From Mycolicibacterium sp. lyk4-40-TYG-92 (GTDB taxonomy: Bacteria > Actinomycetota > Actinomycetes > Mycobacteriales > Mycobacteriaceae): a DNA stretch of 64,000 nt. Of the stretch, positions 601-62,400 are shown one piece after another. The stretch covers positions 62,001 to 126,000 of the forward strand of contig NZ_JARVRX010000003.1 in assembly GCF_030209435.1 (NCBI RefSeq). The letters are read 5' to 3'. Under the pieces are notes generated by a model. The model did not search any database, was not told the DNA's origin, and worked only from the letters and a program-made list of their open reading frames with translations. Made by a program: the position numbers and the translations under genes. Every line of letters begins with the position of its first letter. Position 1 is the first letter of the stretch.

Positions 601-1461
601 ATGGCAGACGGGTTGACCATTGTTGGAGTTGGCCGCAGTGGTACTTCGACGGCGACGGCATTTGCCGAGTTTGCAGGGCTGCGCCTGCCCCGTGATGTCC
701 TTCCAGCCGATCAGTGGAACCCTGACGGATACCTCGAAAGCAGCAGCCTCATTCATTTCAATGATCGCCTGCTGGCGGCCAGCGGTCAGACGTGGCTGAA
801 GCCACGCCGCACCGACCGCAATTCCGTAACGGAATACCGCTGCTTACGCCGCGCCATGAAGGCGTTCAAAACCTCGTTCGGGAGCGGCCCGGGTTGGGTC
901 TGGAAAGATCCCCGATTGCCCATGTTGCTTCCGTTCTGGGATCAAGTGCTCGGCGTGCAGCCGGCACTGGCCCCCTACCGAGAGCCGGTCGCAGTCGCCG
1001 CGAGCATCTCACGACGCGACAATGTCAATCTTGATGTTGCCCTTGCGATCTGGGAGCGCCATTCGCGTCAGATGCTCACCTCGGTCGCCGGTCGCCCAGT
1101 CCTGTTCAGCGATTATTCCCAACTTACCGGGCAGCCTGAATCCTGGTTCCGGCAGTTTTTCGACTTCTGCGTGGCGGCCGGGCTCAAAGTAACCGATGCA
1201 AATATCGACTTCGGTGCGCGCATTCGACACATCGACCGACCCGCCATACAGAAGAAGCCCACTTCGGAGCAATCCGAGTTGGCAGAACTGATCTGTAGCC
1301 TGGACGGCCCACACGAGAATTTCCAACAGATTTCACTACCGGATGAATCCCCGAGCACCCAGCGACTCATCGAGTCGGTGCAGAGCCCGCGCATGGCTGC
1401 CCGCATCCGCGCAACGTTCACCATGAGGCCGAAGTACGTCGTACTGGCGAACTTACTCTGA
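601..1461 (+). CDS. Sulfotransferase family protein
   Basis: This 286-residue protein is likely a PAPS-dependent sulfotransferase. Residues 7-16 form a P-loop-like phosphosulfate-binding motif (IVGVGRSGTS). Around residue 100 there is a WKDPRLP segment like the KDPR motif seen in bacterial sulfotransferases of polysaccharides and glycolipids. The ATG at 601 is preceded by a GAGG box. No signal peptide or membrane segment is visible, so it should act in the cytoplasm. It is the first gene of a surface-glycan locus, which suggests that it sulfates a sugar or lipid made there, but the acceptor cannot be read from the sequence. The family call is fairly safe and the substrate is unknown. Confidence 0.72.
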   Translation: MADGLTIVGVGRSGTSTATAFAEFAGLRLPRDVLPADQWNPDGYLESSSLIHFNDRLLAASGQTWLKPRRTDRNSVTEYRCLRRAMKAFKTSFGSGPGWVWKDPRLPMLLPFWDQVLGVQPALAPYREPVAVAASISRRDNVNLDVALAIWERHSRQMLTSVAGRPVLFSDYSQLTGQPESWFRQFFDFCVAAGLKVTDANIDFGARIRHIDRPAIQKKPTSEQSELAELICSLDGPHENFQQISLPDESPSTQRLIESVQSPRMAARIRATFTMRPKYVVLANLL

Positions 1462-1523
1462 TCACGCAATAGCGCGCACGGATGACGTTGCGCAACCAGC
1501 CAATTTACGCATCAGGTGCAGGT

Positions 1524-2162
1524 TCAACGTGCGTAGCGTGCAGTGAACGTCGGGCTGAGTAGCCGTCCGGATACCTTGGCGGTGCGCGGCAGCAGCGCAC
1601 GAAATTCACGTCGCGACAGCAATCGCGTAAATTCCTTCTGGTGGCGCTTTCGCCAAGCCGGAATCCAATGCAGAAATAGTGTCGATGTGTGGGACTCGAC
1701 TGGGAACCACTTGTTCGGTGTGGTTATGATCCACGTGCGCGCCACCCGCGTCATCTCCTCAACCATTCGCCGCTGGTCGATTTCCTGCCCTACGTGCTCA
1801 ATTATGGCGTTTGCCAACGCAAAATCGACGCAGTCGTCGACAAAGGGCAGAGCGCGTGCGTCGGCAAGCATGAACGGATACGTCGTCGCAGCACGCTCGA
1901 TGTTGATGCCTATTTTGACTGGATAGTGCTCTGCGATACACCTTTCGATAACGCCGGAATTCGCCAGATTTGGGTCGTCACCGTGTTCATCGCCCGTTGC
2001 TCCCACCAACAACACGTCCCCGGCGCCCTGCGCAGCCATGAAGCCGAGGATGAAGCGCGCCTTCTTTCTCCGGTTGTACAGGCTGTACGCAAGGACTGCC
2101 TTGCGGACGGTTTTCCCGACGAGTTCCGCCAGCGACACGCACCCACCCCCGCTCTCTGACAA
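1524..2162 (-). CDS. SAM-dependent class I methyltransferase
   Basis: A 212-residue methyltransferase of the type found in glycan clusters. The glycine-rich SAM motif near residues 50-56 (VLLVGAT) is degenerate. A clear acidic motif with the PFVDDCVDFALANAIIEHV pattern follows at about 105-125, then a conserved TTPNKWFPVE segment near 150. The same 'PNKwFPvesHt' signature occurs in methyltransferases next to O-antigen genes, and the gene at 12316-13311 has the related APNKLFPLD. The frame opens with TTG at 2162; an in-frame GTG at 2138 behind a G-rich stretch is an equally good start. The gene is on the opposite strand to its flanking genes. The acceptor is unknown. Confidence 0.7.
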   Translation of the reverse strand: MSESGGGCVSLAELVGKTVRKAVLAYSLYNRRKKARFILGFMAAQGAGDVLLVGATGDEHGDDPNLANSGVIERCIAEHYPVKIGINIERAATTYPFMLADARALPFVDDCVDFALANAIIEHVGQEIDQRRMVEEMTRVARTWIITTPNKWFPVESHTSTLFLHWIPAWRKRHQKEFTRLLSRREFRALLPRTAKVSGRLLSPTFTARYAR

Positions 2163-2507
2163 TTCCCCACAGATGCAATTAGGTCGCTGCTCGTAGCACT
2201 CGTAGCAGTGGCCAAAGTACCCCAGGGAGCGAATCCCGAGGCTCGAATCTCAATTCCCCGATCACGGCTTGCCGTAGCGACGGGCTCTCACTCCCTCAAG
2301 GCATCTCGTGCTGCCGATCACTTCAAACACCGCGTTCCAGGATCTGGCTCACGTCGACGGCCGGCTACTCGGCCCAGGTCGCGCATACGCCTTTGGCGAG
2401 CGTGGCTGCGTGTTCAAGGGCGCAACTCCGAGCCCGCCGATCAGGCTTTGCCATTTACTGACGTCAGCGTCAACATCGACGTAAGCTCTCACTCATCGGG
2501 CTGAGAG
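2163..2507. other. Intergenic region, nothing recognised
   Basis: About 345 bases separate the leftward methyltransferase from the rightward secreted-protein gene. A short near-repeat (ctcgtagca, twice) lies near 2190-2208. I see no promoter or RNA that I can defend, though promoters for both flanking genes should be here. Confidence 0.4.
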
Positions 2508-2969
2508 GTGACCATCGTGACCAGTTTCGCCACACGCATAGCAGCCATCACCGGAGGAACGCTCGCACTGACGATAGCGGCGGGCGTTGGCGGCGGAGTC
2601 GCGTCCGCCGTCGACCCGTTCGCGGGCATGCGATACGACAAGGTCGTCGAGTCCCTCAAATCCTGGAACGGCAAATCCGAAGTGGTAGCCGTCGTTGGGG
2701 ACCAGTTGAAGCGCGATGACTGCATCGTGTCTTCTTCCCGCAAAGAGAAGAAGACAGGAACCTACTTGCTGGCGCTCTACTGCGATGGCGCCTACGCAAC
2801 CGCGGGCCAGCCCGGTCGGTCAATGGGAACCCCAGAAGGGCGTAACGCCGTGAAGCACGAAGCCCAAGTCAAGTGGCTGCGTGAGAATCCCGACTACTGC
2901 CGCACGATGAAGCAGTCTCATCCCGAATGGTTCAAACAACCGGTAGAAGGGTGTGAAAACCTCGACTAG
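2508..2969 (+). CDS. Secreted protein of unknown function
   Basis: A 153-residue protein with an N-terminal export signal: a hydrophobic stretch at residues 10-32 ends in a VASA-VD cleavage-like site near residue 34, leaving a mature domain of about 120 residues. The mature part contains three cysteines (in DDCIV, DYCRT and EGCEN) and a lysine-rich segment (SSSRKEKKTG). I do not recognise the family. GTG at 2508 follows a GAGAGG box; a second GTG nine bases downstream could also serve. It stands between a methyltransferase and an acyltransferase, so it may be exported as part of the same surface-glycan locus, but nothing in the protein proves this. Confidence 0.6.
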   Translation: MTIVTSFATRIAAITGGTLALTIAAGVGGGVASAVDPFAGMRYDKVVESLKSWNGKSEVVAVVGDQLKRDDCIVSSSRKEKKTGTYLLALYCDGAYATAGQPGRSMGTPEGRNAVKHEAQVKWLRENPDYCRTMKQSHPEWFKQPVEGCENLD

Positions 2970-3091
2970 GCCGGCCATCGGGGCCCTGCGCACGAGATCG
3001 GAGCTCACGGGCGAGATGTTCGGTGGAGCTACGATCGGCCGCACCACCGGAACCCGCGCACCGGCCGTCTTCGCCGCTTTCGGATGGACAG

Positions 3092-4435
3092 ATGATCACG
3101 CGACTGTCTGAGTGGTTCCGATACGATCCGAGTCGCTATCCGCTGGGATACAACCCCGGGCTCGACGGCCTGCGCGGTACCGCGACGCTTTGCGTACTGG
3201 CAGCACACCTCAGTCCCACCTGGTGCCCCGGTGCATTCCTGTACATGGACATGTTCTTTGTGATGAGCGCGTATCTGATTACGTCGCTCCTCCTCAAGCG
3301 GTGGGCGAAGAATGGCAACGTCGGGTTTGGCACGTTCTATGCTCGCCGCGTACTTCGGCTGTTCCCCGCAAATTACGCGATGATCGGCTGCTTCGTCGTT
3401 GCCGCGTACCTGATCCTCGACGACGATTTCATTTGGCATGTCATCGAAGCGGCCGCGGCAGCTACCTACGTCTCCAACTGGACCCGCGCCTTCGAAGCTC
3501 CGATCCCCGGATTCTTAAGCCACACTTGGTCGCTCGCCGTCGAAGAACAGTTCTATCTGATCTGGCCTGTGTTACTCACATTGCTGCTAAAGGCCATCGG
3601 ACTCCGGATCCGCCTTGTTGTGCTGCTGGCGGTCCTGGCACTCGGTTCCGCCGGCTGGCGGAGTTGGCTCACGTTCCACGGAGCATCCATGGAGCGCCTG
3701 TACAACGGAACCGATGTGAGAGCCGACGCGCTCCTGATCGGCTGCGCGCTGGGTATTGCATTGGCAATGCCCAAGATACGCAACAGCCCGACCCTGCAGC
3801 GAACCGCGAAGATCCTGGCGGCCCCATCGCTGATCGCACTACTCGTGGGCGGGTTCACCATGGATCAACACAACCTCGCGATGTACGCCGGAATCTCATT
3901 GTTCTTCACTTTGGCGTCCGCGTGCCTGATAACCGCGCTGGTGCTGCCCGAGCAGACGATTGCCCACCAGGCATTTCGATCACCGCCGCTGGTCTTCCTC
4001 GGCCGCATTTGCTACGGCCTCTACATCTGGCACTTCCCGATATTCATGTTCATCATGTTCGGATTCGGGATCACCCATCCAGTGGTGGCGGGGCTGATCG
4101 GCGTTCCCTTGACATTCGCCGCCGCAATCCTATCGTGGCGATTCATCGAAAGCCCCTTCCTCAAGGCGAAGGATCGAATTCCGATCCAAGGCCCGGCGCA
4201 CGCCACACGAAAACTCAGCCCATCGCCTAGCCCGGGTATACGCTGGCAACGGCGGGAATCGCTGCTAATTCAATTGCCTTCGCTATCGCCGAGCCTGCTG
4301 CGCTCACCACGTGTAACTGCGCAGGCGAGCCAGAATCTAGCGGCCAGCGTCGATGGCTGCAGCACCGAGTCAACGGCGCACAGGGCGAACCGAACCAGGA
4401 CCAGCAGGAAGGCGGCAACTCACACCAATGAATGA
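3092..4435 (+). CDS. Acyltransferase 3 family membrane protein
   Basis: An integral membrane O-acyltransferase of the OafA/acyltransferase 3 family, which transfers acetyl or other short acyl groups to sugars across the membrane. The GLDGLRGTATLCVLAAHL motif at the N-terminus carries the conserved histidine. It is followed by the RRVLRLFPAN segment and SLAVEEQFYLIWP, all hallmark blocks of the family, then about ten hydrophobic segments ending in FIESPF. I place the start at the ATG at 3092, close to the conserved motif; a GTG at 3023 would add 23 unsupported residues. The last 70 or so residues after the FIESPF block are low-complexity and overlap the start of the next gene by 8 bases. The substrate is probably the glycan of this locus. 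Confidence 0.82.
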   Translation: MITRLSEWFRYDPSRYPLGYNPGLDGLRGTATLCVLAAHLSPTWCPGAFLYMDMFFVMSAYLITSLLLKRWAKNGNVGFGTFYARRVLRLFPANYAMIGCFVVAAYLILDDDFIWHVIEAAAAATYVSNWTRAFEAPIPGFLSHTWSLAVEEQFYLIWPVLLTLLLKAIGLRIRLVVLLAVLALGSAGWRSWLTFHGASMERLYNGTDVRADALLIGCALGIALAMPKIRNSPTLQRTAKILAAPSLIALLVGGFTMDQHNLAMYAGISLFFTLASACLITALVLPEQTIAHQAFRSPPLVFLGRICYGLYIWHFPIFMFIMFGFGITHPVVAGLIGVPLTFAAAILSWRFIESPFLKAKDRIPIQGPAHATRKLSPSPSPGIRWQRRESLLIQLPSLSPSLLRSPRVTAQASQNLAASVDGCSTESTAHRANRTRTSRKAATHTNE

Positions 4436-5243
4436 AACAACTAGTTTCACGTTCAGCCGTGAAGAACTTTTCCCCATCGCAGACGCGTATCGAGAGAAGT
4501 TTCAAAACGCCGATCCGTTTCCACACATAGTAATTGACAATTTCCTGCCTGCGGCGGTTCTGGAGCCTGTGCTGAGCGAGTTTCCGGAACCGGGTGGCAC
4601 CGAATGGCAGCAGTACGACAACGGTCGCGAAGTGAAGCTCGCGCTTGCCGACTCAGAACGGATGGGCCCAGCAACCCAACATCTGTTGGCGCAGTTCAAC
4701 TCTGCACCTTTTGTCGACTTCATCGAACGACTCACCGGGATCGAGGGGATCGTTCCTGACCCCCACTTCTTTGGAGGTGGACTGCATCAGATCCGGACCG
4801 GCGGCTTCCTCAAGGTCCACGCTGATTTCAATCGCCATCACCGACTGAACCTGGACCGGCGGTTGAACGGCCTTCTCTATCTGAACAAAGATTGGGAGGA
4901 ATCCTGGGGCGGGCACATTCAGTTGTGGGATCGCGACATGCAGCAATGCGTCCAGAAATCGCTACCCATCTTCAACCGATTCCTGCTCTTTGCGACAACC
5001 GACTTCTCGTATCACGGTCATCCAGATCCTCTGACCTGCCCGCCGCATCGTTCACGCCGGTCGATGGCGCTCTACTACTACACCAATGGCCGCCCAGATG
5101 AAGAGAAATCGTCGAGCGCACACTCGACGCTGTTTCGCGCCCGGCCGGGTGAGTCCATGAGCTCCACATTCAAGCAGAAGCTGAAGCGCTGGGTGCCGCC
5201 CGCCGCCATCGAAGGAGCGCAAAAGTTTCGGAATCAGCACTGA
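4428..5243 (+). CDS. 2-oxoglutarate/Fe(II)-dependent oxygenase, prolyl 4-hydroxylase-like
   Basis: A 271-residue member of the 2OG-Fe(II) oxygenase superfamily. The iron-binding HxD is seen as VHADFN. The distal histidine lies in YHGHPDPL, and the arginine that binds 2-oxoglutarate is likely in the RRSMALYYYTNG block, giving the usual H-x-D...H...R order. The region after HxD (RLNGLLYLN, WGGHIQLWD) is typical of the prolyl 4-hydroxylase alpha-subunit family (2OG-FeII_Oxy_3). The start is the ATG at 4428 behind AGGAAGG, overlapping the upstream acyltransferase gene by 8 bases, so the two are probably co-translated. Such enzymes occur in polysaccharide clusters, where they may hydroxylate a sugar, lipid or protein. 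The substrate is unknown. Confidence 0.8.
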   Translation: MNETTSFTFSREELFPIADAYREKFQNADPFPHIVIDNFLPAAVLEPVLSEFPEPGGTEWQQYDNGREVKLALADSERMGPATQHLLAQFNSAPFVDFIERLTGIEGIVPDPHFFGGGLHQIRTGGFLKVHADFNRHHRLNLDRRLNGLLYLNKDWEESWGGHIQLWDRDMQQCVQKSLPIFNRFLLFATTDFSYHGHPDPLTCPPHRSRRSMALYYYTNGRPDEEKSSSAHSTLFRARPGESMSSTFKQKLKRWVPPAAIEGAQKFRNQH

Positions 5244-5294
5244 GCGCGCAGATTTCGGCGCTCGCCCGATCAACGACCTCAATGCGATTACGAT

Positions 5295-6212
5295 TTGACT
5301 GAAGCGTCGATCAGTTGGGAGGTAGCAGTTTTGGTGTCGGATGTCGTGTTGAGATACCGCCAGAACTATGGCTTGGGTGACGAAATCGGGATCGAACAGG
5401 TGCAGGCCCACGAGCAGCTCGAGGCCCGGCTGACTCGCGAGTTGCTCGCATCCACACCCGAGTTGCGCTGGGAGGTCTTCAGCGCGGCGTATACCGAACT
5501 GTACGAATCTCTACCCTGGCTCAATACAACTGACGACTCTAGACCCGCATGGTGGACGGCGACATGGCTGAGGCTGGTGCCGGCGCACTCCGACGTCATC
5601 GAGGTAGGAAGCGGTCGAGCGGCCCTCATTCGTGACCTCGTGCGCTCCGGGCACCGGTGCGTCGCCACCGAGATTTCCCCAGAGCGGGGATCAAAACACC
5701 TCGCTGAGTCGGACGGGCTCCAGTGGCACATAACCGACGGCATCCACCTCGCATCATTCGAACCTGACGATTCGTTCGATGTTGTCATTTCCACACAAGT
5801 TATCGAGCACTTCCACCCTGACGACCTGCTGGTGCACTTTCAGAACGCGCGCCGCATCCTTCGACCCGGCGGCCGCTACCTGTTCGACACTCCGCACCGC
5901 AGTTCGGGCCCGCACGACCTCTCTCGCGTATTCGATTACGAACGCGCACAATTCATGCATCTGAAGGAGTACACGCACGACGAACTCACGAGCACTCTGA
6001 AGGCCGCCGGTTTCGACGAAGTAAAGGCTGTCATCGCGTTTCCGGGCGTTGTCGTCCAAACCGGCATCGGTCTACGTCTGTTGCGCTTGCTAGACCGAAT
6101 TGAAGATCGGATGATCACGCGCACCAAGTGGAAGCGAATCCTCAGGGGACTGTTGAGCAAAGTCGGGGTTTCGAGGAACATCTGGCTCGCGGCGTATCGC
6201 AAGTCCGCGTGA
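5295..6212 (+). CDS. SAM-dependent class I methyltransferase
   Basis: A 305-residue methyltransferase. Motif I is DVIEVGSGRAALIRDL near residues 99-114. The acidic residue of strand 2 is in CVATEIS. The post-I and motif II region is FDVVISTQVIEHFHPDDL followed by RRILRPGGRYLFDTPHR, all classical for the class I fold. An N-terminal 90-residue helical extension precedes the catalytic domain. The start is taken as TTG at 5295; other TTG/GTG codons lie about 40 bases downstream. It overlaps the following glycosyltransferase start by one to four bases, which indicates co-translation. It likely methylates a sugar hydroxyl of the locus product, but the position is not predictable. Confidence 0.8.
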   Translation: MTEASISWEVAVLVSDVVLRYRQNYGLGDEIGIEQVQAHEQLEARLTRELLASTPELRWEVFSAAYTELYESLPWLNTTDDSRPAWWTATWLRLVPAHSDVIEVGSGRAALIRDLVRSGHRCVATEISPERGSKHLAESDGLQWHITDGIHLASFEPDDSFDVVISTQVIEHFHPDDLLVHFQNARRILRPGGRYLFDTPHRSSGPHDLSRVFDYERAQFMHLKEYTHDELTSTLKAAGFDEVKAVIAFPGVVVQTGIGLRLLRLLDRIEDRMITRTKWKRILRGLLSKVGVSRNIWLAAYRKSA

Positions 6213-41148: not shown

Positions 41149-44100
41149 GCGGCGCCGCTCTCGCGGCGCTGCCTATGGGTCGTCAGCGCGGCCGCACTGG
41201 TCCTGACGTTCGCCCAGTCACCGGGCCGGGTCTCGCCCGACACCAAACTCGATCTCACCGCCAACCCCGCACGCTTCCTGTCGCGGGCCGCGAATCTGTG
41301 GAGCAGCGACCTCCCCTTCGGCCAGTCGCAGAACCAGGCCTACGGCTACCTGTTCCCGCACGGCACGTTCTTCCTCGCCGGTGACGTCATCGGCCTGCCC
41401 GGCTGGGTGACTCAGCGACTGTGGTGGGCACTGCTGCTGGTCGTCGGATTCTGGGGGCTGGTGCGCGTCGCCGAGGCCCTCGGCATCGGCAGCCGATCGT
41501 CCCGCGTCCTCGCCGCCGTGGCGTTCGCCCTGTCCCCGCGGGCGCTGACGACGCTGGGCGCCATCTCGTCCGAGACTCTGCCGATGATGCTGGCGCCGTG
41601 GGTGCTGCTGCCGGTGATCCTGGCGCTGCGCGGCGATCCGCGGATTCGGCAGCTGGCGGCCCGCTCGGCCGCCGCCGTCGCGCTGATGGGCGCGGTGAAT
41701 GCCGTCGCCACGCTGACGGGCTGCCTGGCCGCGATCTTCTGGTGGGCCGCGCACCGGCCCAACCGGCGCTGGTGGCGCTTCACGGCCTGGTGGTTCGGCT
41801 GCACGCTGCTCGCGATCCTGTGGTGGGCCGTGGCGCTGCTGCTGCTCGGCCGGATCAGCCCGCCGTTCCTGGACTTCATCGAATCGTCGGGCGTGACGAC
41901 GCAGTGGCTGTCGCTGACCGAGGTGCTGCGCGGAACCTACGGCTGGACGGCGTTCGTCGCGACCAATGCGACGGCCGGGTCGTCGCTGGTGACCGGTTCG
42001 GTGGCGGTACTGGCCACGACACTGGTGGCGGCCGGCGGCATGGCCGGCCTGGCGATGCGCAGCATGCCGGCGCGTGGGCGGCTCATCTCGATGCTGCTAC
42101 TCGGTCTGCTGCTGCTGGCGGTCGCGTACTCGGGTGGCCTGGGCTCGCCGATCGCGCACCAGGTGCAGATCTTCCTGGACGCCGCCGGCACGCCGCTGCG
42201 CAACGTCCACAAACTCGAGCCCGTGCTGCGGCTGCCGCTGGCGCTGGGCCTGGCCCACGTGCTGGGCCGGATTCCGTTGCCGGGCACCGTGCCGCGGCGG
42301 GAGTGGATCAACGCGTTCGCGCACCTCGAGCGGGACAAGCGGATGGCCGTGGCCGTGGTGCTGCTGACAGCGCTGGCCGCCGGCACGTCGCTGGCGTGGA
42401 CGGGCCGGCTCGCCGCGCCGGGTACCTACCGCGCCATCCCGCAGTACTGGCACCAGACCGCGGACTGGCTCGACGCCCACAACGCCGAGACGCCGGGACG
42501 CGTGCTCGTCGCTCCGGGTGCGCCGTTCGCGAACCAGGTCTGGGGCAATACGCATGACGAGCCGCTGCAGGTCCTCGAGCGCGGCGCGTGGGGCGTGCGC
42601 GACTCGATTCCGCTGACGCCGCCCGAGACCATCCGCGCCCTGGACTCCGTGCAACGCCTGTTCGCCACCGGGCGGCCGTCCGCCGGATTGGCCGACACGC
42701 TTTCCCGCCAAGGTATTTCGTTCGTCGTGGTGCGCAACGACCTCGATCCCGACAACTCCCGGTCCGCGCGGCCGCTGCTGGTGCACCGGGCCTTGGAAGG
42801 TTCCCGGGGGATCACAAAAGTCGCCCAGTTCGGTGACCCCGTCGGCCCGGGCACGCTCGACGGCTTCGTCTCCGACAGCGGCCTGCGGCCGCGCTACCCC
42901 GCCGTCGAGATCTACCGCGTGACGGGCGCCGCGACCACCGTGCCGTACCTGGCCGACGCCGACACCATGCCCCGCATCGACGGCGGGCCCGAATCACTGC
43001 TGCGCATCGACGAGCGTCGCCGCCTGATGGGCCGAAACCCGTTGGGCCCCATGATCTTGACGTCCGACGCGCAGCGCGCCGGACTGCCGGTGCCCGAGGT
43101 CACCGTCACCGACACCCCGCTGGCCCGGGAAACCGACTACGGCCGTGTCGATGACCACTCGTCGGCGGTGCGGGCCCCCGACGACCCGCGGCGCACCTTC
43201 AACCGCGTCATGGACTACCCCAGCCCGGGCGCCACGACCGCCTACGGCCAGTGGCCGGGCGGACGGATCACGACGTCGAGTTCGTCGTCCGATTCCACCG
43301 CGCTGCCCAACGTGGCGACGGCGGCCGGGCCGGCCGCGGCGATCGACGGCGACACTTCGACCAGCTGGGTGTCCAGCTCGTTGCAAACCGCTGTGGGGCA
43401 ATGGCTTCAGGTCGACTTCGACCATCCGGTGACCAACGCGACCATCACCCTGACACCCAGCGCCACCGCCGTCGGCGCCCAGGTGCGCCGGATCGAAGTG
43501 GCAACAGCCAACGGCACCAGCACCATTCGTTTCGACCAGCCCGGCAAACCACTTACCGCAGCCCTGCCCTATGGCGAGACGTCGTGGATCCGGTTTACCG
43601 CGACCGGCACCGACGACGGCTCCCCCGGCGTGCAGTTCGGCATCACCGACTTCTCCGTGACGCAGTACGACGCGTCCGGTTTCGCCCACGCCGTGAGCCT
43701 GCGGCACACCGTCGACGTTCCCGGTCCACCGCCGGGATCAGCTGTCGCACAATGGGATCTGGGCAACGACCAACTGGGCCGGCCCGGCTGCGCCCAGGGC
43801 CCGAACGGGGTCCGGTGCGCCGCCACCATGGCCCAATCGCCCGAAGAGCCCGTGAACATGAGCCGCACCCTCACCGTGCCGGCTCCGGTCGCCGTCGTCC
43901 CCACGATCTGGGTGCAGGCCCGGCAGGGGCCGCACCTGGCCGACCTCGTGACCCAGCCCGGCACCACCCGGGCGTCCGGTGATTCCGACGTCATCGACGT
44001 CGAGGGATCGGCCTACGCCGCCACCGACGGCGACCCGCGCACCGCCTGGGTGGCCCCGCAGGGCATCGTCCAGTTCCGGGGCGGCGCCAACCTGACCGTG

Positions 44101-45333
44101 CACCTGCCGGCCCCGACGACCGTCAGCGCCCTGCGACTCACGCCCAGCGCCTCCGAGCTGCCGGCGCATCCGACCGTCGTCGCCGTCGATCTCGGCAACG
44201 GACCGCAGGTCCGACGGATCGGCGACGGGCCGCAGACCATCAAGCTCGCCCCCGCCAAGACCGACACCATCAAGCTGTCGATCCTCGACTGGCACGACCT
44301 GATCGACCGCACGTCACTGGGATTCGATCAGGTGAAGCCGCCGGGCCTGGCCGAGGTCACCGCCCTCGACGACCGCGGCGCGCCGATCGCCCCCGCCGAC
44401 GCGGCTGCCAACCGGCGCCGCGCCATCACGCTGCCGTGTGGCCGCGGACCGATCATCGCGATCGCGGGCCAGTTCCTGCAGACCTCGGTGCACACCACGG
44501 TCGGCGCGCTGCTGGAGAGCGAGCCCATCGCGGCCCAGCCGTGCCAGTCCGCGCCGCTGCAACTGCCCGCCGGGAAGCAGGAGCTGCTGATCAGCCCCGG
44601 CCCGTTCTTCACCGTCGTCGGCGCCCGCCTCACCGGCCCGCTCGCGACCCACATCCACAGCGCCCCAACAACTCCCGCGCAGCTGAAGAAATGGACGTCC
44701 GACCACCGCGAGGTGGACGTGGCCCCGTCTCCGGTACAGCGGGTGCTCGTCGTGCCCGAGAGCGTCAACCCCGGCTGGACGGCTCATACCGCCAACGGCG
44801 CCATCCTCACGCCGGTGACCATCAACGGCTGGCAACAGGGCTGGGTGCTACCGGCCGGCACCGCGGGCATCGTGACGCTGACGTTCCCGCTCAACACTCC
44901 GTACCGCATCGGGCTGTTCGGCGGGCTCGCGCTGCTCCCGTTCCTGGCACTGTTGGCGCTGCTACCGATGCGGCGCCGCGTCGATGACGACGCGACGCAG
45001 ACCTGGCAGCCGGGTCCCGCGGTCGTCGGCGTGGCCCTCGTCGGGTTCGGTTTCCTGGTGGCCGGATTCGCGGGTCTGGCGACCGTCGGCGCGGCCATCG
45101 GCATCCGGTACCTACTGAGATCACGGGTGCGATGGCTGGACGGCTGGACCGTCATCGCCTCGGCGAGCGGCCTGATCGGTGCGGGCGCGGTGCTCAGCGC
45201 GTACCCGTGGCGGTCGGTGGACGGCTACGTGGGGCATTCACCGTGGGTGCAGTTCCTGGCACTGGTCTCCGTCGCGGCGCTGGCCGCGTCGTTGTGGGAC
45301 CCGCCGCCGCGTGCGGAGAAATTGATCAGCTGA
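41149..45333 (+). CDS. aftD: Alpha-arabinofuranosyltransferase AftD
   Basis: A very large GT-C membrane enzyme (GT53 family) that adds arabinofuranose to arabinogalactan and lipoarabinomannan from decaprenyl-phosphoarabinose. About a dozen hydrophobic segments occur in the first 450 and last 130 residues, enclosing a long extracytoplasmic region with F5/8-type carbohydrate-binding features (AAIDGDTSTSWVSS and a second AATDGDPRTAWVAP). Coding sequence with strong AftD character (ALVLTFAQSPGRVSPDTKLD) runs in frame from about 41149, giving about 1,394 residues, close to the 1,400 of Rv0236c. No ATG, GTG or TTG exists in that frame before GTG 41407, so the start is uncertain: a non-standard start or a one-base error is possible. 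Confidence 0.9.
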   Translation, partial: AAPLSRRCLWVVSAAALVLTFAQSPGRVSPDTKLDLTANPARFLSRAANLWSSDLPFGQSQNQAYGYLFPHGTFFLAGDVIGLPGWVTQRLWWALLLVVGFWGLVRVAEALGIGSRSSRVLAAVAFALSPRALTTLGAISSETLPMMLAPWVLLPVILALRGDPRIRQLAARSAAAVALMGAVNAVATLTGCLAAIFWWAAHRPNRRWWRFTAWWFGCTLLAILWWAVALLLLGRISPPFLDFIESSGVTTQWLSLTEVLRGTYGWTAFVATNATAGSSLVTGSVAVLATTLVAAGGMAGLAMRSMPARGRLISMLLLGLLLLAVAYSGGLGSPIAHQVQIFLDAAGTPLRNVHKLEPVLRLPLALGLAHVLGRIPLPGTVPRREWINAFAHLERDKRMAVAVVLLTALAAGTSLAWTGRLAAPGTYRAIPQYWHQTADWLDAHNAETPGRVLVAPGAPFANQVWGNTHDEPLQVLERGAWGVRDSIPLTPPETIRALDSVQRLFATGRPSAGLADTLSRQGISFVVVRNDLDPDNSRSARPLLVHRALEGSRGITKVAQFGDPVGPGTLDGFVSDSGLRPRYPAVEIYRVTGAATTVPYLADADTMPRIDGGPESLLRIDERRRLMGRNPLGPMILTSDAQRAGLPVPEVTVTDTPLARETDYGRVDDHSSAVRAPDDPRRTFNRVMDYPSPGATTAYGQWPGGRITTSSSSSDSTALPNVATAAGPAAAIDGDTSTSWVSSSLQTAVGQWLQVDFDHPVTNATITLTPSATAVGAQVRRIEVATANGTSTIRFDQPGKPLTAALPYGETSWIRFTATGTDDGSPGVQFGITDFSVTQYDASGFAHAVSLRHTVDVPGPPPGSAVAQWDLGNDQLGRPGCAQGPNGVRCAATMAQSPEEPVNMSRTLTVPAPVAVVPTIWVQARQGPHLADLVTQPGTTRASGDSDVIDVEGSAYAATDGDPRTAWVAPQGIVQFRGGANLTVHLPAPTTVSALRLTPSASELPAHPTVVAVDLGNGPQVRRIGDGPQTIKLAPAKTDTIKLSILDWHDLIDRTSLGFDQVKPPGLAEVTALDDRGAPIAPADAAANRRRAITLPCGRGPIIAIAGQFLQTSVHTTVGALLESEPIAAQPCQSAPLQLPAGKQELLISPGPFFTVVGARLTGPLATHIHSAPTTPAQLKKWTSDHREVDVAPSPVQRVLVVPESVNPGWTAHTANGAILTPVTINGWQQGWVLPAGTAGIVTLTFPLNTPYRIGLFGGLALLPFLALLALLPMRRRVDDDATQTWQPGPAVVGVALVGFGFLVAGFAGLATVGAAIGIRYLLRSRVRWLDGWTVIASASGLIGAGAVLSAYPWRSVDGYVGHSPWVQFLALVSVAALAASLWDPPPRAEKLIS

Positions 45334-57832: not shown

Positions 57833-58172
57833 ATGCTCTACTCCTCAGAACCGGCGGTACATCGATGGAGCGGGATATCCAATTGCATTGAATGAGAACG
57901 GAGTTCGAACGCACAGCATCACCGGGCCCAGTTGCCTGGATCCGCAAAATTCGAGGGACACCCGAAGGCCAAAACCCGGAGGTGGCCCTCATTTCTATTA
58001 AATTTGACTTGGCCGTCAGTTTATGCGGCGGGGCGATGTCGAACAGCAAAACGGCGGATTTGCATCAGAAATGATCGCCACCATGAGGACGGGTTGCTGG
58101 TGACCCGCCATTCAAGGGCCCCGGACATGCCACCTGGCCCGAAGACCCGGTTGCCGGGCGTCATCGCCTCTT
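57833..58172. other. Intergenic region upstream of the sugar transferase
   Basis: No gene is seen in these 340 bases. A low-GC segment (TTTCTATTAAATTTGACTT, near 57990-58008) is a good candidate for the leftward promoter of the sugar transferase. It also contains the end of the type VII-associated operon transcript; I find no clear terminator. Confidence 0.45.
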
Positions 58173-58955
58173 TCAGTCGACAGGCGCGCGCGTAGCCGTC
58201 GGACGAGCCGCCGGCGCGCTCGGATCGATCGGCGCCCGCCCGGCTCCGCTCGAATTACCTTGAACCGCTTGATCGTGGGACGTCTGAGGCCGGCCCGTTC
58301 CGTCGCGCTCTGCCCGTGCAGACTTCTTACGTTCCGCATCATCGCCCTCACGCGCGCCCCGTTCAGCGTCGCGCACCTTGAGGTCCTTGCCCTGACCGGC
58401 GCCGCCAGCCGAAGTAGACTGCGATGCTTGCTGTGCAGCTTGTGCGATCTGCTGCGGGATCTGTTGCAGGCCCTGCGCCAGGCCCTGCAAAGGCTGGGTG
58501 ACCGATTGCGCCAGCTGACCGACCTGCTGGCCCACCTGCCCCAGCATTTGGCCCATTTGGCCGATCATCTGTTGGCCTGCCTGAGCACTGGGAGCGCCGT
58601 CGGTCGGTCCGCCCGTCTGGCTACCGGAACCATTACCGTCCATCCCGCCCGCAGCGGCCTTGATTCGTTCCCCAGCTTGTCGATCGCCGTCAGCGTATGC
58701 CCTCGACGCGCGCTGCAGGCGTTCCGAAAACTTGTCGGCAGTCTCCGTGACAGCGCCAAAGACCTCACCACGGCCCTCCAGCGCACTCGAAAGCGCCGTG
58801 GAAACGGCGGACGACACGACGCCGTGGCTGGTGTCAACGCCCTTACCGTCGGGCGCACCCGCGCCGAGTAGACCTGACATACCCGAGGAGACATCGGCGT
58901 GCTGCTGGGCGTAGTTCAACAATCCCGCAGGGTCGACGCGCAGCGGTTCGGTCAT
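58173..58955 (-). CDS. EspC-like type VII secretion substrate
   Basis: A 260-residue protein whose first 100 residues look like the EspC/DUF2580 group of ESX-associated substrates. It begins TEPLRVDPAGLLNYAQQHADV, then has two amphipathic helices, followed by Y87-A-D-G-D91, a fit to the general type VII secretion signal YxxxD/E. The middle (about residues 125-185) is glutamine-rich with GQMGQMLGQVGQQVGQLAQ-type near-repeats likely to form a long helix. The C-terminal 70 residues are charged and disordered. ATG at 58955 follows GGGAGAT. It is the last gene of a leftward trio and is expected to be exported. Confidence 0.7.
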   Translation of the reverse strand: MTEPLRVDPAGLLNYAQQHADVSSGMSGLLGAGAPDGKGVDTSHGVVSSAVSTALSSALEGRGEVFGAVTETADKFSERLQRASRAYADGDRQAGERIKAAAGGMDGNGSGSQTGGPTDGAPSAQAGQQMIGQMGQMLGQVGQQVGQLAQSVTQPLQGLAQGLQQIPQQIAQAAQQASQSTSAGGAGQGKDLKVRDAERGAREGDDAERKKSARAERDGTGRPQTSHDQAVQGNSSGAGRAPIDPSAPAARPTATRAPVD

Positions 58956-58998
58956 GACAGATCTCCCGTCCAGTGGGTAGCGAGTTCCAATGGAGACG

Positions 58999-59916
58999 TC
59001 AAGGTCGGTCACCTATTGGCAGCGGCCACCCCGGGATTGCGTCGCCGTGCGGAGGCGGCGTGTCTCTGAACCCGGTGATGGTGGCGCGACGTTCCGCGGC
59101 GTTCTGCGGCATGACGGCATTACAACGGTTTTGAGGTTCGGGGTATCTCCAATGCAGCGACTTTGTATCGCCTTTTGGACCCCATCCGCCAAAACTCGCC
59201 GCAGTGATAAACCAGTTGCCGAAAACGTCGAGGTCGGGCGAGAAAGCAGGCCCCTTCTGCGGAGTCGTAACATCACCGGGAGCATCCGGACCGATGCGAG
59301 GATCGTGCTGAGTCAGCGTGATCCGGACGGGATATACCCCGAGATCTTCAGGCTTGTCACCACCCTTATATGGCTCCCCGGTCACCGCGTCCGCGTTGAC
59401 GGCAACAAACTTTCCTGGTCGCACGCGGCTGGCCACAAAATGGGGATAGGACCCTGTACAGACGATTGCTTCCCAGCCAGCCCCCTGCGGCACAAGCTCC
59501 AGGAAATGGTTGATCTCGTATCCGAAATGCGCAACCGCGCCCTTCGGAGTAGTCGGATATCCCTCGCCCAGCGGACGCACATACGTCTGTTGCAATAATT
59601 CCGCTTGCTTGAATGTCAGATTCTCCGGCGTCGCCCGCATGAAACCGGGATACACGTTGCTCGCATCCACAGTGAACGTCGCAACCCCATAGGCTTCCAC
59701 ATACGCACGGACCACCATGGCCGGACCCGTCGTAAGGTCAATGCCGGGTTCGGCGCTCCAACGGAACCGGAAATCATTGAGCAGGGGCGGCCAATACTGG
59801 AACAGGCGCTTCGACTCGGACGTCGTTGCACCGGTATCAGTTTTCGGATCATCGATACATCCAGAAACCAGCGAGACAACAGCAAAAAGACACGCAGCGA
59901 TTCTCGTTATTCGCAT
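58999..59916 (-). CDS. Lipoprotein of unknown function
   Basis: A 305-residue predicted lipoprotein: the signal ends in LVSGC with the modified cysteine at residue 20. The mature domain has GIDLTTGPAMVVRAYVEAYG, a ...VNADAVTGEPYKGGD... segment and two further cysteines (IVCTG and NRCNA), and no catalytic motif that I recognise. It lies three bases downstream of the WXG-like protein gene and 43 bases upstream of the EspC-like gene, so the three should be one operon. It may act as a surface partner of the exported proteins. Confidence 0.72.
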   Translation of the reverse strand: MRITRIAACLFAVVSLVSGCIDDPKTDTGATTSESKRLFQYWPPLLNDFRFRWSAEPGIDLTTGPAMVVRAYVEAYGVATFTVDASNVYPGFMRATPENLTFKQAELLQQTYVRPLGEGYPTTPKGAVAHFGYEINHFLELVPQGAGWEAIVCTGSYPHFVASRVRPGKFVAVNADAVTGEPYKGGDKPEDLGVYPVRITLTQHDPRIGPDAPGDVTTPQKGPAFSPDLDVFGNWFITAASFGGWGPKGDTKSLHWRYPEPQNRCNAVMPQNAAERRATITGFRDTPPPHGDAIPGWPLPIGDRP

Positions 59917-59919
59917 TAT

Positions 59920-62322
59920 CTAACCGGTCCCATAGATCGAGCCAGTGTAGGTGTTCCAGTACGACTGCAGAAGACTATCGATGGACCCTGATTTACCGAT
60001 TGATTCAAGATAAGCCACGACCGCATTGTGGTAGTCCTGATAATCCCTGCCACCGTTTTGATCAGGCGGCTTCAACTTTCCATCTTCGAAATAGCCTGAC
60101 AACTTCGACAAATCCCCCGCGTTCGACTGCGCCAGTACCTCCGCCATGTGCTGCTGCGTGGGAAATGTACCTGGAATGACAGGACTGGCTGCCTTACCTT
60201 CCTTCGGCTCCGGGCCGATGATGTATTCCTTACCGAGGTCCATCACGTCCTTCGCAGCACCACCGGGGGCGCCGAATTGGTCGACACCCGCGCCGGCAAT
60301 GTCGTACAACTTCGAACGCAGTTGCCACGCATCGTGCTGAGCCTGAAAATCGTTGTGCAGTCGGGAATTTGCTTCGTCGAAGCTTCCCAGATTCAGCGCT
60401 GCCTGTAGACGACCTGCGGCCTGAGCCGAGAAGTCATCTTTCGCGCCATTTGGGTCCACCGCGGACAATGCCGCCTTGTCGAACATCTCATTCACGTGGT
60501 GCTGAGTGGCCTCGAAAACGATCTGGCTGGCAGTCTTCGGCACATGCGCGTCGGGCTTTTGGTCGGCCGGCGGATGGTCGGACATCAGCACGCTCATGAC
60601 GTGGCGCGTGTTCGTCGGTTCAGTCTTACTGCCATCAGCCGGATCAAGTGGCGGGAACAGTCCGTTGTTTCCACCGGTGTTGTTGCCCACCATGTCGTCA
60701 AGATACGGAGATAAGGCCCGCGCCCAATCACGGGTGAGTTCGGGGTTGACCTGGCCAAGGGACTGGCCGAGCGATTGGCCCGGCGCGCTTTCCAAATTCA
60801 GCAAGTGATGCTTGTCCGGGTCGCTCATGTACTCGGCGAGAGCATGCGCCGTCTGCGCAGCACGACCGTTCGAATCGTGCGCGGCAGTGTCTCCGACCCA
60901 GTCAAAGAGGCCGCCAGCGGCCAATCCGTTGTCCTGCCACTCATGCTTGGTGAGATTATCGAGAAAATTGTCCCTGCCAGACCCAGTAACGGCATCGTGG
61001 ATCACCATGTCGTCCTTGTTCAGGGCGTTGAACATATTCTGTAGGGTCGGGTCAACGTGCTCGTGGTACCAACGCGCGCGGTCTGCCCCATCGGCTCCGG
61101 GCGCGTGAGCCTGAGCGATCGTCATGTTGTTCGACTGATCCAGCATTTCCTGGCTTTTTGTGAACAGCCCTGAATCGAGGGCGGTTCCTGCCTGGAGATC
61201 GCGATTGCCGCTCTGGACGATGTTGGCGAGGTCGTTCAGTCCAGTCGTTCCATGCATTGGACCGATGGGGTCCGGTGGTACCAACCACCGACCGTCTGCG
61301 AACACGCCACTGCTGAAATCCTGTGTCAGAGCGGGCCCATCGAGCACCTTCTGAATGCCGTCGGGCAGGGCGTACTTTCCACCGCTGGACGGATGGTCAA
61401 TTGACGGAGGTTGTGTCTCCGGCAGTCCCGTCTTGATGTTGGGGTTCGATGCGAGCTGAAAGACATCAGCGACGCGTTTACCGTCAGGGCCGGCTTTGTC
61501 CATGATCGCTTTGATCTCGGCCGGCGTCTTGTCGCCGAATGCGCGGGAGAATCCCTGGAGATACGCCATCTGGTCGGGCGGCATATTCAGTTTTCCGTTG
61601 TGCAGCGCGGCCTGTTGCTCGGGACTCAGGGTGGTGTTTTGTGTCAGACGCTCACGCTGTTCCGGGGTCAGCTGTCCGTTCTGCAGGGCATTGGCATCGT
61701 CAGCGCCCGTTTGAGCCGGCGACTTCTTGTCGTCCTTGCCATCCTTTTTGTCATCGCCGACGACCGTTTCCTTGTCGCCCTTGTTGTCCTTGTCGTCCTT
61801 CTTGTCGTCCTTCGGCGACAGCGGCAGGTCGCCTTTGATTGCGCTGTACTGCGTTGTGAGCGCCTTGATGTCGCCGGCAACGGCATTCTGCTGCGTCACA
61901 GTCGACGTCAGCAGATCGCTAACCTGCTTGAGTCCCTGACTGGCGATGGGCAACAACTGCATGTCGCGGTTACGTCCGGCCGGCACCTGGGCCGCCATAT
62001 CCTGAACCCACTTACGGGTCTCATCAAGGCCCTGCCGACCCTTCGTGACGATCTCGGCCGATCGATCGACAGTGGCGCGCAACTGCTGGTCCAGGTCCGC
62101 CAGTCCACCTAGGGCACGTCCCTGACTGTTGTTGGCCTTGCCATAAGCAGTGGACGCGGTACCGCTCCAGTTATCCCCTGGCGCTGCAGCCTGCACGGTG
62201 GCCTGCATGCCACGCAACTGCGTGCTCTTGTCGAAATGTTCGCCCGTCTGCGGCGTACCGGTACCGAATGTGGCGTGCGCCCGCTGCCACACCGAATCAA
62301 ACGCATCGAGCACATCCCCCAT
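59920..62322 (-). CDS. Large WXG-like type VII-associated protein
   Basis: An 800-residue protein, first gene of the trio. Its N-terminal 110 residues form two long helices around N51-W52-S53-G54, a WXG100-like turn, as in large ESX effectors and LXG-type proteins. A Lys/Asp-rich linker (about residues 170-205, KDDKKDDKDN-type) follows, then a 600-residue region with long helical stretches and several His/Asp/Trp-rich segments (e.g. WYHEHVDPTLQNMF, HEWQDNGLAAGG). I recall similar mycobacterial proteins labelled 'TPR repeat region-containing'. No enzymatic or toxin domain is recognisable. There is no signal peptide. The start is the ATG at 62322. Confidence 0.68.
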   Translation of the reverse strand: MGDVLDAFDSVWQRAHATFGTGTPQTGEHFDKSTQLRGMQATVQAAAPGDNWSGTASTAYGKANNSQGRALGGLADLDQQLRATVDRSAEIVTKGRQGLDETRKWVQDMAAQVPAGRNRDMQLLPIASQGLKQVSDLLTSTVTQQNAVAGDIKALTTQYSAIKGDLPLSPKDDKKDDKDNKGDKETVVGDDKKDGKDDKKSPAQTGADDANALQNGQLTPEQRERLTQNTTLSPEQQAALHNGKLNMPPDQMAYLQGFSRAFGDKTPAEIKAIMDKAGPDGKRVADVFQLASNPNIKTGLPETQPPSIDHPSSGGKYALPDGIQKVLDGPALTQDFSSGVFADGRWLVPPDPIGPMHGTTGLNDLANIVQSGNRDLQAGTALDSGLFTKSQEMLDQSNNMTIAQAHAPGADGADRARWYHEHVDPTLQNMFNALNKDDMVIHDAVTGSGRDNFLDNLTKHEWQDNGLAAGGLFDWVGDTAAHDSNGRAAQTAHALAEYMSDPDKHHLLNLESAPGQSLGQSLGQVNPELTRDWARALSPYLDDMVGNNTGGNNGLFPPLDPADGSKTEPTNTRHVMSVLMSDHPPADQKPDAHVPKTASQIVFEATQHHVNEMFDKAALSAVDPNGAKDDFSAQAAGRLQAALNLGSFDEANSRLHNDFQAQHDAWQLRSKLYDIAGAGVDQFGAPGGAAKDVMDLGKEYIIGPEPKEGKAASPVIPGTFPTQQHMAEVLAQSNAGDLSKLSGYFEDGKLKPPDQNGGRDYQDYHNAVVAYLESIGKSGSIDSLLQSYWNTYTGSIYGTG

Positions 62323-62400
62323 ACCGACCTAGTCTATTCGTGGTCGGCGAACTGCCAGACGGTAATTTCCCAGCTCAAGCCAGTTTCGCTCGCAGTCGCG

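What the first reader, a model, noticed from the sequence alone, without database searches (positions are those of the whole stretch)
58173..62322. Possible undescribed type VII-associated export cassette
Three tightly packed genes encode an 800-residue protein with a WXG-like helical hairpin, a lipoprotein, and an EspC-like protein with a YxxxD signal and a Gln-rich helical stalk. There is no ESX core gene nearby, so the cassette would use a chromosomal ESX machine in trans. The large protein's 600-residue body has no recognised domain, and its pairing with a lipoprotein could mean a surface complex, an immunity pair or a contact-dependent effector.
Basis: partly seen in the sequence, partly recalled or inferred. 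Interest (0 to 1): 0.7.

Follow-up and report, generated by a model that had tools for sequence, protein, structure and literature searches.

The report
ESX-exported toxin with lipoprotein immunity
Three genes that sit in this mycobacterium's chromosome, at a spot where four close relatives lack them, look like a chromosomal cousin of phage toxin-immunity cassettes: a large protein likely exported as a toxin against other bacteria, a lipoprotein predicted to protect the producer, and a likely export partner; in some relatives the lipoprotein is instead a cut-down copy of the large protein's own tail.

Summary
The three genes are real, co-directional and tightly packed. The big protein carries Pfam EspA_EspE (19-100) and TPR_23 (229-475), so its body is not wholly unknown; 476-800 match nothing in Pfam. 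The third gene is EspC-family, probably starting at 58955. No ESX core is near; three EccB loci lie elsewhere in the genome.

The cassette is a 4.3-kb insert: four relatives have the flanking genes 307-324 bp apart. In 151 genomes of the family the lipoprotein occurs only with TPR_23 (41/55 against 0/96); in 78 of 107 sampled loci it follows the big gene within 84 bp. Its divergence follows big-protein residues 421-570 and not the export domain. Tandem copies, stand-alone copies and export-domain swaps complete a polymorphic toxin-immunity pattern. Mycobacterial prophages carry the same triad, named toxin-immunity.

New here: the chromosomal EspA/EspC-type version, and lipoproteins that are copies of the big protein's own C-terminal domain, nine of nine lacking the same ~60-residue stretch.

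Verdict: new variant of a known kind. Toxicity, export and immunity are inferred; no toxin domain is recognised, and 19 of 107 big genes have no lipoprotein that I could see.

The parts
59920..62322 (-). Large protein (BIG), 800 aa, ATG; predicted T7SS-exported toxin
   Evidence: PF18879 + PF23275; model m7ac77e2287d2 pLDDT 80.6, pTM 0.69
62023..62268 (-). BIG residues 19-100, EspA_EspE export domain with W52-x-G54
   Evidence: PF18879 7.1e-22; swapped as a block in relatives (P0136, P0150, P0167)
60898..61638 (-). BIG residues 229-475, TPR_23 domain
   Evidence: PF23275 2.6e-65
59923..61014 (-). BIG residues 437-800, C-terminal domain (homologous to a class of lipoproteins in relatives)
60118..60357 (-). 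BIG residues 656-735, stretch largely missing from the nine C-domain lipoproteins; contains the Gly/Pro-rich segment that is the most hydrophobic 28-mer in 67 of 104 BIGs
   Evidence: in the window's own protein only weakly hydrophobic (KD 0.31)
58999..59916 (-). Lipoprotein (LIP), 305 aa; predicted immunity lipoprotein, NTF2-like fold suggested
59857..59868 (-). Lipobox VSGC (Cys20)
   Evidence: sequence; invariant Cys20
58173..58955 (-). EspC-family protein, 260 aa from ATG 58955 (279 aa from GTG 59012), YADGD signal, Gln-rich stalk; likely export partner
   Evidence: PF10824 52.5 bits; start
58067..62397 (.). Inserted segment, absent from the same site in four relatives, which have 65-71 bp of unrelated sequence there

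Best explanation
The three genes at 58173-62322 form a chromosomal cassette predicted to export a polymorphic toxin (the 800-residue protein) through one of the cell's own ESX machines, with the EspC-like protein as its likely export partner and the lipoprotein as the likely immunity protein on the producer's membrane. Inferred sequence of events: the WxG hairpin of the big protein pairs with the YxxxD-bearing EspC-like protein to make a composite export signal; an ESX machine in trans secretes the pair; the TPR_23/C-terminal body acts at the envelope of neighbouring cells, probably at the cytoplasmic membrane seen from outside, because the protector is a lipoprotein; the lipoprotein, moored on the producer's membrane, blocks residues of about 421-800. 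Shown: cassette structure, insertion, co-occurrence, module swaps, co-variation, prophage counterparts named toxin-immunity. Inferred: export, toxicity, target, and the direct BIG-LIP contact.
For: Known domains for T7SS export in BIG and EspC. LIP only in TPR_23 genomes: 41 of 55 against 0 of 96 in the family; 87 of 98 in the genus. LIP within 84 bp of the BIG stop in 78 of 107 sampled BIGs, more than one LIP ORF in 21. LIP divergence follows BIG 421-570 (partial rank correlation 0.45, 0 of 300 permutations; genus only 0.42, 0 of 500) and not the export domain (-0.01 and 0.04). Export domain swapped as a block: P0167 82-98% identical to the window in 1-160 and mostly 20-40% after; P0136 mostly 20-40% in the N-terminus and 57-98% over 201-580. 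EspC lies downstream mostly where the N-terminus is EspA-type (8 of 26 against 4 of 81) and upstream otherwise (40 of 81 against 1 of 26). Stand-alone LIPs at 7 sites. Prophage triads, with Aegeus gp34, annotated 'polymorphic toxin immunity protein', matching the LIP model at 3e-56; LIP model matched in 6 of 6 prophage/plasmid cassettes tested. Two other prophage cassettes are reported toxic in M. smegmatis without their imm gene (PMC10654092, section 8 read). Lipoprotein slot filled in some relatives by a copy of BIG's own C-domain. Insert with an empty site in four relatives.
Against: No toxin domain or catalytic motif is recognised in 476-800. Unlike classical polymorphic toxins the C-domain is recognisably homologous across the family rather than replaced outright. 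29 of 107 BIGs have no NTF2-like LIP downstream; 10 of these have another lipoprotein, 19 none that I recognised, one of those (L136) at a contig end. My lipobox pattern was met by 84 of 103 LIP ORFs. In the genus-only test the TPR part 205-320 also keeps some correlation with LIP (0.22, 0 of 500), and permutations do not remove phylogeny. The two cassettes tested in print were not shown to be of the TPR_23/LIP type; the authors call the role unclear.
Confidence: 0.62

Rival explanations
1. A surface complex: the exported BIG is kept on the producer's own envelope by the lipoprotein, forming an adhesin, filament or envelope structure, without a toxin.
For: The lipoprotein is near-constant beside BIG in many loci and co-varies with it; C-domain lipoproteins could be anchors that polymerise with BIG; published EspC filament is a reference title in PMC9811218.
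Against: Tandem LIPs in 21 of 78 loci, stand-alone LIPs without BIG at 7 sites, a stand-alone C-domain lipoprotein on a plasmid, prophage carriage next to genes named toxin-immunity are what immunity genes do; an anchor has no use without its partner.
Confidence: 0.15
2. A host- or predator-directed ESX effector in the manner of EspA, with a lipoprotein that helps export or modulates the host.
For: EspA_EspE domain; deposited names 'EspA/EspE family type VII secretion system effector'; authors of the prophage cassettes leave pathogenicity open (PMC10654092 passages).
Against: Found in 18 of 31 genera of the family in chromosomes, prophages and plasmids, with the polymorphic pattern above; nothing ties it to a host.
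Confidence: 0.12
3. A secretion chaperone or accessory: the TPR_23 part is an EspK-like domain that holds another ESX substrate.
For: PMC9811218 passages: the EspK C-terminal domain resembles Rv3899c(184-410), and Rv0029 and Rv2082 have the same fold; that these are TPR_23 proteins is my recollection, not a call.
Against: No profile match of BIG or of TPR_23 alone to that structure and it is not among the fold matches listed (inconclusive); a chaperone needs no co-varying lipoprotein.
Confidence: 0.08

Closest known systems
Prophage PT-Imm / PEST cassettes of the M. abscessus-chelonae complex (PMC8092301, PMC9934374: passages; PMC10654092: passages and all of section 8)
   Same: WXG/EspC-like small protein, large protein with N-terminal export hairpin, downstream immunity protein, some predicted lipoproteins; the prophage Aegeus, prophiFSAT01-1, FSQJ01-1, FVLQ01-1 and GD79-1 cassettes encode TPR_23 BIG and NTF2-like LIP homologues
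   Different: Here chromosomal, inserted between two glycosyltransferase-type genes, with an EspA-type instead of a WXG100/PE-PPE-like or CpnT-like export domain and the EspC gene at the 3' end
TslA/TilA of Staphylococcus aureus (PMC10730906, passages)
   Same: T7SS-exported toxin, helical partner protein(s), immunity lipoprotein adjacent to the toxin-domain end of the gene, in variable copy number
   Different: TslA is a phospholipase with reversed domain order; TilA is DUF576; no sequence relation was found here
EsxX/ExiCD of S. aureus (PMC12744356, passages)
   Same: Exported T7SS toxin proposed to insert a Gly-rich segment into the target membrane; outward-acting immunity genes also occur as orphans
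   Different: ExiCD are polytopic membrane proteins, the inner immunity ExiAB has no counterpart seen here; glycine zipper is a different motif from the PG-rich stretch described here
EspA/EspC and EspE/EspF, ESX-1-associated substrates
   Same: Same Pfam families at the N-terminus of BIG (PF18879) and in the third gene (PF10824)
   Different: Those are short proteins without the TPR_23/C-domain body or a lipoprotein (recalled, no call)
TPR_23 proteins near EspK/Rv3899c (PMC9811218, passages)
   Same: TPR_23 domain (recalled for the Rv proteins)
   Different: No lipoprotein pairing is described in the passages seen

Membership tests
PT-Imm / PEST toxin-immunity cassettes | Three genes: WXG100/EspC-like small protein, large protein, downstream immunity gene | tested here: met
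   gene order differs (EspC last)
PT-Imm / PEST toxin-immunity cassettes | Large protein with N-terminal WxG export hairpin | tested here: met
   PF18879 78.1 bits, W52/G54 invariant, helices; of EspA type, not one of the three published superfamilies as described
PT-Imm / PEST toxin-immunity cassettes | Immunity protein co-varies with the C-terminal part | tested here: met
   strongest for 421-570, weaker for the last 100 residues
PT-Imm / PEST toxin-immunity cassettes | Carried by a prophage beside an attachment site (PEST means phage-encoded) | tested here: not met
   Insert of only the three genes between a glycosyltransferase and a sugar transferase gene, no phage gene inside; so a relative of PEST, not a PEST
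PT-Imm / PEST toxin-immunity cassettes | Toxic without its immunity gene | not testable with these tools
   needs an experiment; published for two other cassettes
EspA/EspE family (PF18879) | Profile match over the curated cut-off | tested here: met
   78.1 against 27 bits
EspA/EspE family (PF18879) | Secretion through ESX | not testable with these tools
   no secretome data
EspC family (PF10824) | Profile match over cut-off and YxxxD signal | tested here: met
   52.5 against 23.5 bits; YADGD in the sequence
TPR_23 (PF23275) | Profile match over cut-off | tested here: met
   221 against 27 bits
EspK-like chaperones | Fold of the EspK C-terminal domain | tested here: inconclusive
   not among the matches
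TilA/DUF576 or LpqN-type lipoproteins | Pfam match of the lipoprotein to such a family | tested here: not met
   only a sub-threshold DUF5548 match at E 0.046; works like TilA at most
NTF2-like / VirB8-like fold (LIP) | Clear structural match | tested here: inconclusive

The most novel reading that the evidence does not exclude
Immunity by an anchored, disarmed copy of the toxin itself: in several lineages the lipoprotein in the immunity slot is the exported protein's own C-terminal domain or tip on a lipid anchor with the membrane-active segment removed, so that it would cap or out-compete incoming toxin at the membrane. The NTF2-like lipoprotein of the window would do the same job at the same site by binding instead of mimicry, and EspA/EspC-type export would be a fourth way into a family-wide, chromosomal ESX toxin arsenal.
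Probability: 0.35. Interest if true: 0.82.

Novelty: new variant of a known kind. Interest (0 to 1): 0.62.

Why it matters
Mycobacterial ESX systems are known above all for virulence; toxin-immunity cassettes are in print for M. abscessus-chelonae prophages with the role left open. If right, chromosomal relatives occur in 18 of 31 genera of the family by TPR_23 and 16 of 31 by the lipoprotein, which would make ESX-mediated competition a common trait of these bacteria and give a concrete reason for many 'EspA/EspE effector' and orphan lipoprotein annotations. The C-domain lipoproteins point to a precise, mutable stretch (656-735) as the likely active part, and make the question 'what do the non-virulence ESX substrates do' directly testable in laboratory M. 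smegmatis.

Tried and rejected

Limits: the 100 regions fetched were picked from the places listed (lists that hold more places, and one search's is cut), mostly from the top, so 78 of 107 is not an unbiased rate; the 151- and 297-genome surveys are. One locus is there twice (L013 = L122); one search removed it. Gene calls are my own GC3 heuristic. The HMMs used to label loci were rebuilt from those loci. Co-occurrence was read from the answers and recounted.
Full report

WHERE IT SITS. The genome (6.17 Mb, 34 contigs) has one TPR_23 match, nine EspC matches, eight over the cut-off, and three EccB loci, two of them with an EspG gene close by. The closest named relative of BIG is 86% identical, from Mycolicibacterium phocaicum. 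Relatives G364, G347, G290 and G298, whose flanking glycosyltransferase is 93-98% identical to the window's, have the two flanking genes 307, 307, 309 and 324 bp apart instead of 4571. Alignment breaks at window 62396-62399 and resumes at 58062-58066, with 65-71 bp of other sequence in the relatives. Three of the four have no TPR_23 at all; G347 has one elsewhere. The cassette is thus a discrete 4.3-kb gain here, or a loss in the four. Its G+C (0.605) is below the rest of the window (0.66), but other stretches of the window are as low.

HOW WIDESPREAD. In 151 genomes of the family TPR_23 is in 55 (18 of 31 genera), LIP in 41 (16 of 31 genera); all 41 LIP genomes are TPR_23 genomes and none of the 96 others has LIP (Fisher p 3e-25, which ignores phylogeny). 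In 297 genomes of the genus: LIP 98, TPR_23 127, both 87. EccB is in 148 of the 151; no TPR_23 in the 3 without; 38 of the 55 TPR_23 genomes have a single EccB, so one ESX machine suffices, which one is not shown.

THE CASSETTE ACROSS LOCI. I mapped 104 loci (window, L013-L015, L075-L174), with 107 BIGs of at least 500 aa. LIP follows BIG in 78, its match starting 12-84 bp after the stop; 21 of the 78 have more than one LIP ORF close by. 26 BIGs have the EspA-type N-terminus of the window; EspC lies downstream in 8 of 26 and upstream in 1, while for the other 81 it lies directly upstream in 40 and downstream in 4. So the partner gene goes with the type of export domain.

MODULES MOVE. Sliding identity against the window: P0091 (M. 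phocaicum) is 100% over 201-320, 52-72% over 321-440, about 90% after, and 62-72% at the last 80-100 residues. P0167 is 82-98% identical over 1-160 and mostly 20-40% after. P0136 is mostly 20-40% in the N-terminus, 57-98% over 201-580, 30-48% after. LIP divergence was compared with that of six BIG segments. Partial rank correlations, 78 loci: 1-165 -0.01; 205-320 -0.07; 321-420 0.13; 421-570 0.45; 571-700 0.07; 701-800 0.12; permutations reaching the value: 172, 283, 0, 0, 28, 0 of 300. Genus only, 46 loci: 0.04, 0.22, 0.18, 0.42, 0.07, 0.19; 89, 0, 0, 0, 60, 0 of 500. Pairs with like N and unlike 421-570 have a median LIP identity of 33% (19 pairs), unlike N and like 421-570 43% (5 pairs), both like 66% (69), both unlike 29% (608). 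LIP belongs with the body, not with the export domain. The test does not remove phylogeny.

STAND-ALONE LIPOPROTEINS. Of the 11 genus genomes with LIP but no TPR_23 match, two are cut by a contig end with BIG remnants (L175, L179), three keep only a C-terminal BIG ORF (L177, L181, L183), one LIP has an in-frame stop (L184), and five have an intact LIP ORF with no BIG in the stretch (L176, L178, L180, L182, L185; L185 is a whole 4.7-kb contig). Two more stand alone in genomes with BIG elsewhere (L186, L187). Orphans are what immunity genes commonly show and what an anchor should not.

COPIES OF THE TAIL AS LIPOPROTEINS. In six loci (L099, L158, L161, L163, L165, L170) the gene right after BIG is not LIP but a 306-322-aa lipoprotein whose mature part is homologous to BIG 437-800; L099 has three in a row, and L015 has one beside its LIP array. 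They are an old side branch: 28-38% to their own BIG, no closer to it than to others. In an alignment with 19 BIGs, all nine have 20-23 residues where BIGs have a median of 85 (window 656-735), while the rest of the domain is there. That stretch holds a Pro-Gly-rich segment that is the most hydrophobic 28-mer in 67 of 104 BIGs (the first 60 residues left out); in the window's own BIG it is the second best and only weakly hydrophobic (0.31). In another genus (L094) a 170-aa lipoprotein has 38 of 39 residues of its own BIG's tip and lacks the same stretch. L082 and L112 have tandem lipoproteins resembling the last ~60-80 residues of their own BIG (49% over 79 aa; 64% over 56 aa; for L082b its own BIG is no better than L112's). 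A stand-alone member sits on a M. arabiense plasmid. Reading: whatever the lipoprotein does, it does to the C-domain, and the missing stretch is the likely active part. A duller reason is that a hydrophobic stretch may hinder Sec export of the copy.

WHAT IS KNOWN. Window BIG finds three phage records, a prophage BIG six. In the five fetched, EspC/WXG-like gene, BIG and LIP stand in this order; LIP matched in 5 of 5 and in plasmid pGD54 (E 1e-43 to 3e-56), the small partner in 4 of 4 phage and 1 of 1 plasmid proteins tested (FVLQ01-1's was not tested). Aegeus gp34 is annotated 'polymorphic toxin immunity protein'; prophiGD79-1 genes 80-82 are described as kin of a polymorphic toxin, immunity and WXG100 set (PMC9934374 passages). 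PEST cassettes are sorted into three export superfamilies, WXG100/PE-PPE-like or CpnT-like; two were toxic in M. smegmatis without imm; the role is called unclear; prophages with PEST were found in the M. abscessus-chelonae complex with one exception (PMC10654092). The EspA/EspC-type, chromosomal cassette of the window is therefore a new variant of that kind. TslA/TilA and EsxX/ExiCD are functional precedents for a lipoprotein and for an orphan-forming outward-acting immunity.

AGAINST. No enzyme or toxin domain is recognised. The C-domain is not replaced outright between relatives. 29 of 107 BIGs have no LIP; of these 10 have another lipoprotein (six C-domain loci, L082, L094, one of L112, L174) and 19 none that I recognised, followed for example by gyrA-like (L125, L128, L131) or PE-like genes (L100, L101, L167, L172; both names recalled from sequence). 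So the TPR_23 family as a whole is wider than the toxin-immunity cassette.

VERDICT. Toxin-immunity cassette exported by an ESX machine in trans, 0.62. Surface complex 0.15, host-directed effector 0.12, chaperone 0.08.

Noticed in passing
own genome G000 (L001-L008, and C28:160904): Nine EspC-family matches, only one beside a TPR_23 gene; the others may be further ESX substrate loci.
   Followed up: no
window 901-5550: Lowest-GC 4-kb stretch of the window (0.59) with acyltransferase, 2OG-Fe(II) oxygenase and glycosyltransferase genes, perhaps another acquired piece.
   Followed up: partly
window 41407-45333: AftD arabinofuranosyltransferase gene, so the cassette lies in a cell-wall/glycan biosynthesis region.
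   Followed up: no
L201 (plasmid pGD54, NZ_CP065277.1): Complete EspC-BIG-LIP cassette on a 31-kb M. abscessus plasmid, all three annotated hypothetical.
   Followed up: partly
L125, L128, L131: BIG without lipoprotein close to a gyrA-like gene in three genomes (gene name recalled from sequence).
   Followed up: no
L100, L101, L167, L172: BIG without lipoprotein followed by a ~450-aa PE-like protein (recalled from sequence).
   Followed up: no
G181, G218, G264, G319, G404, G437 and others: Several LIP copies with in-frame stops, that is decaying copies beside intact ones.
   Followed up: no
L112: Three BIG genes with different lipoprotein partners in 15 kb, two on one strand and one opposite.
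   Followed up: partly
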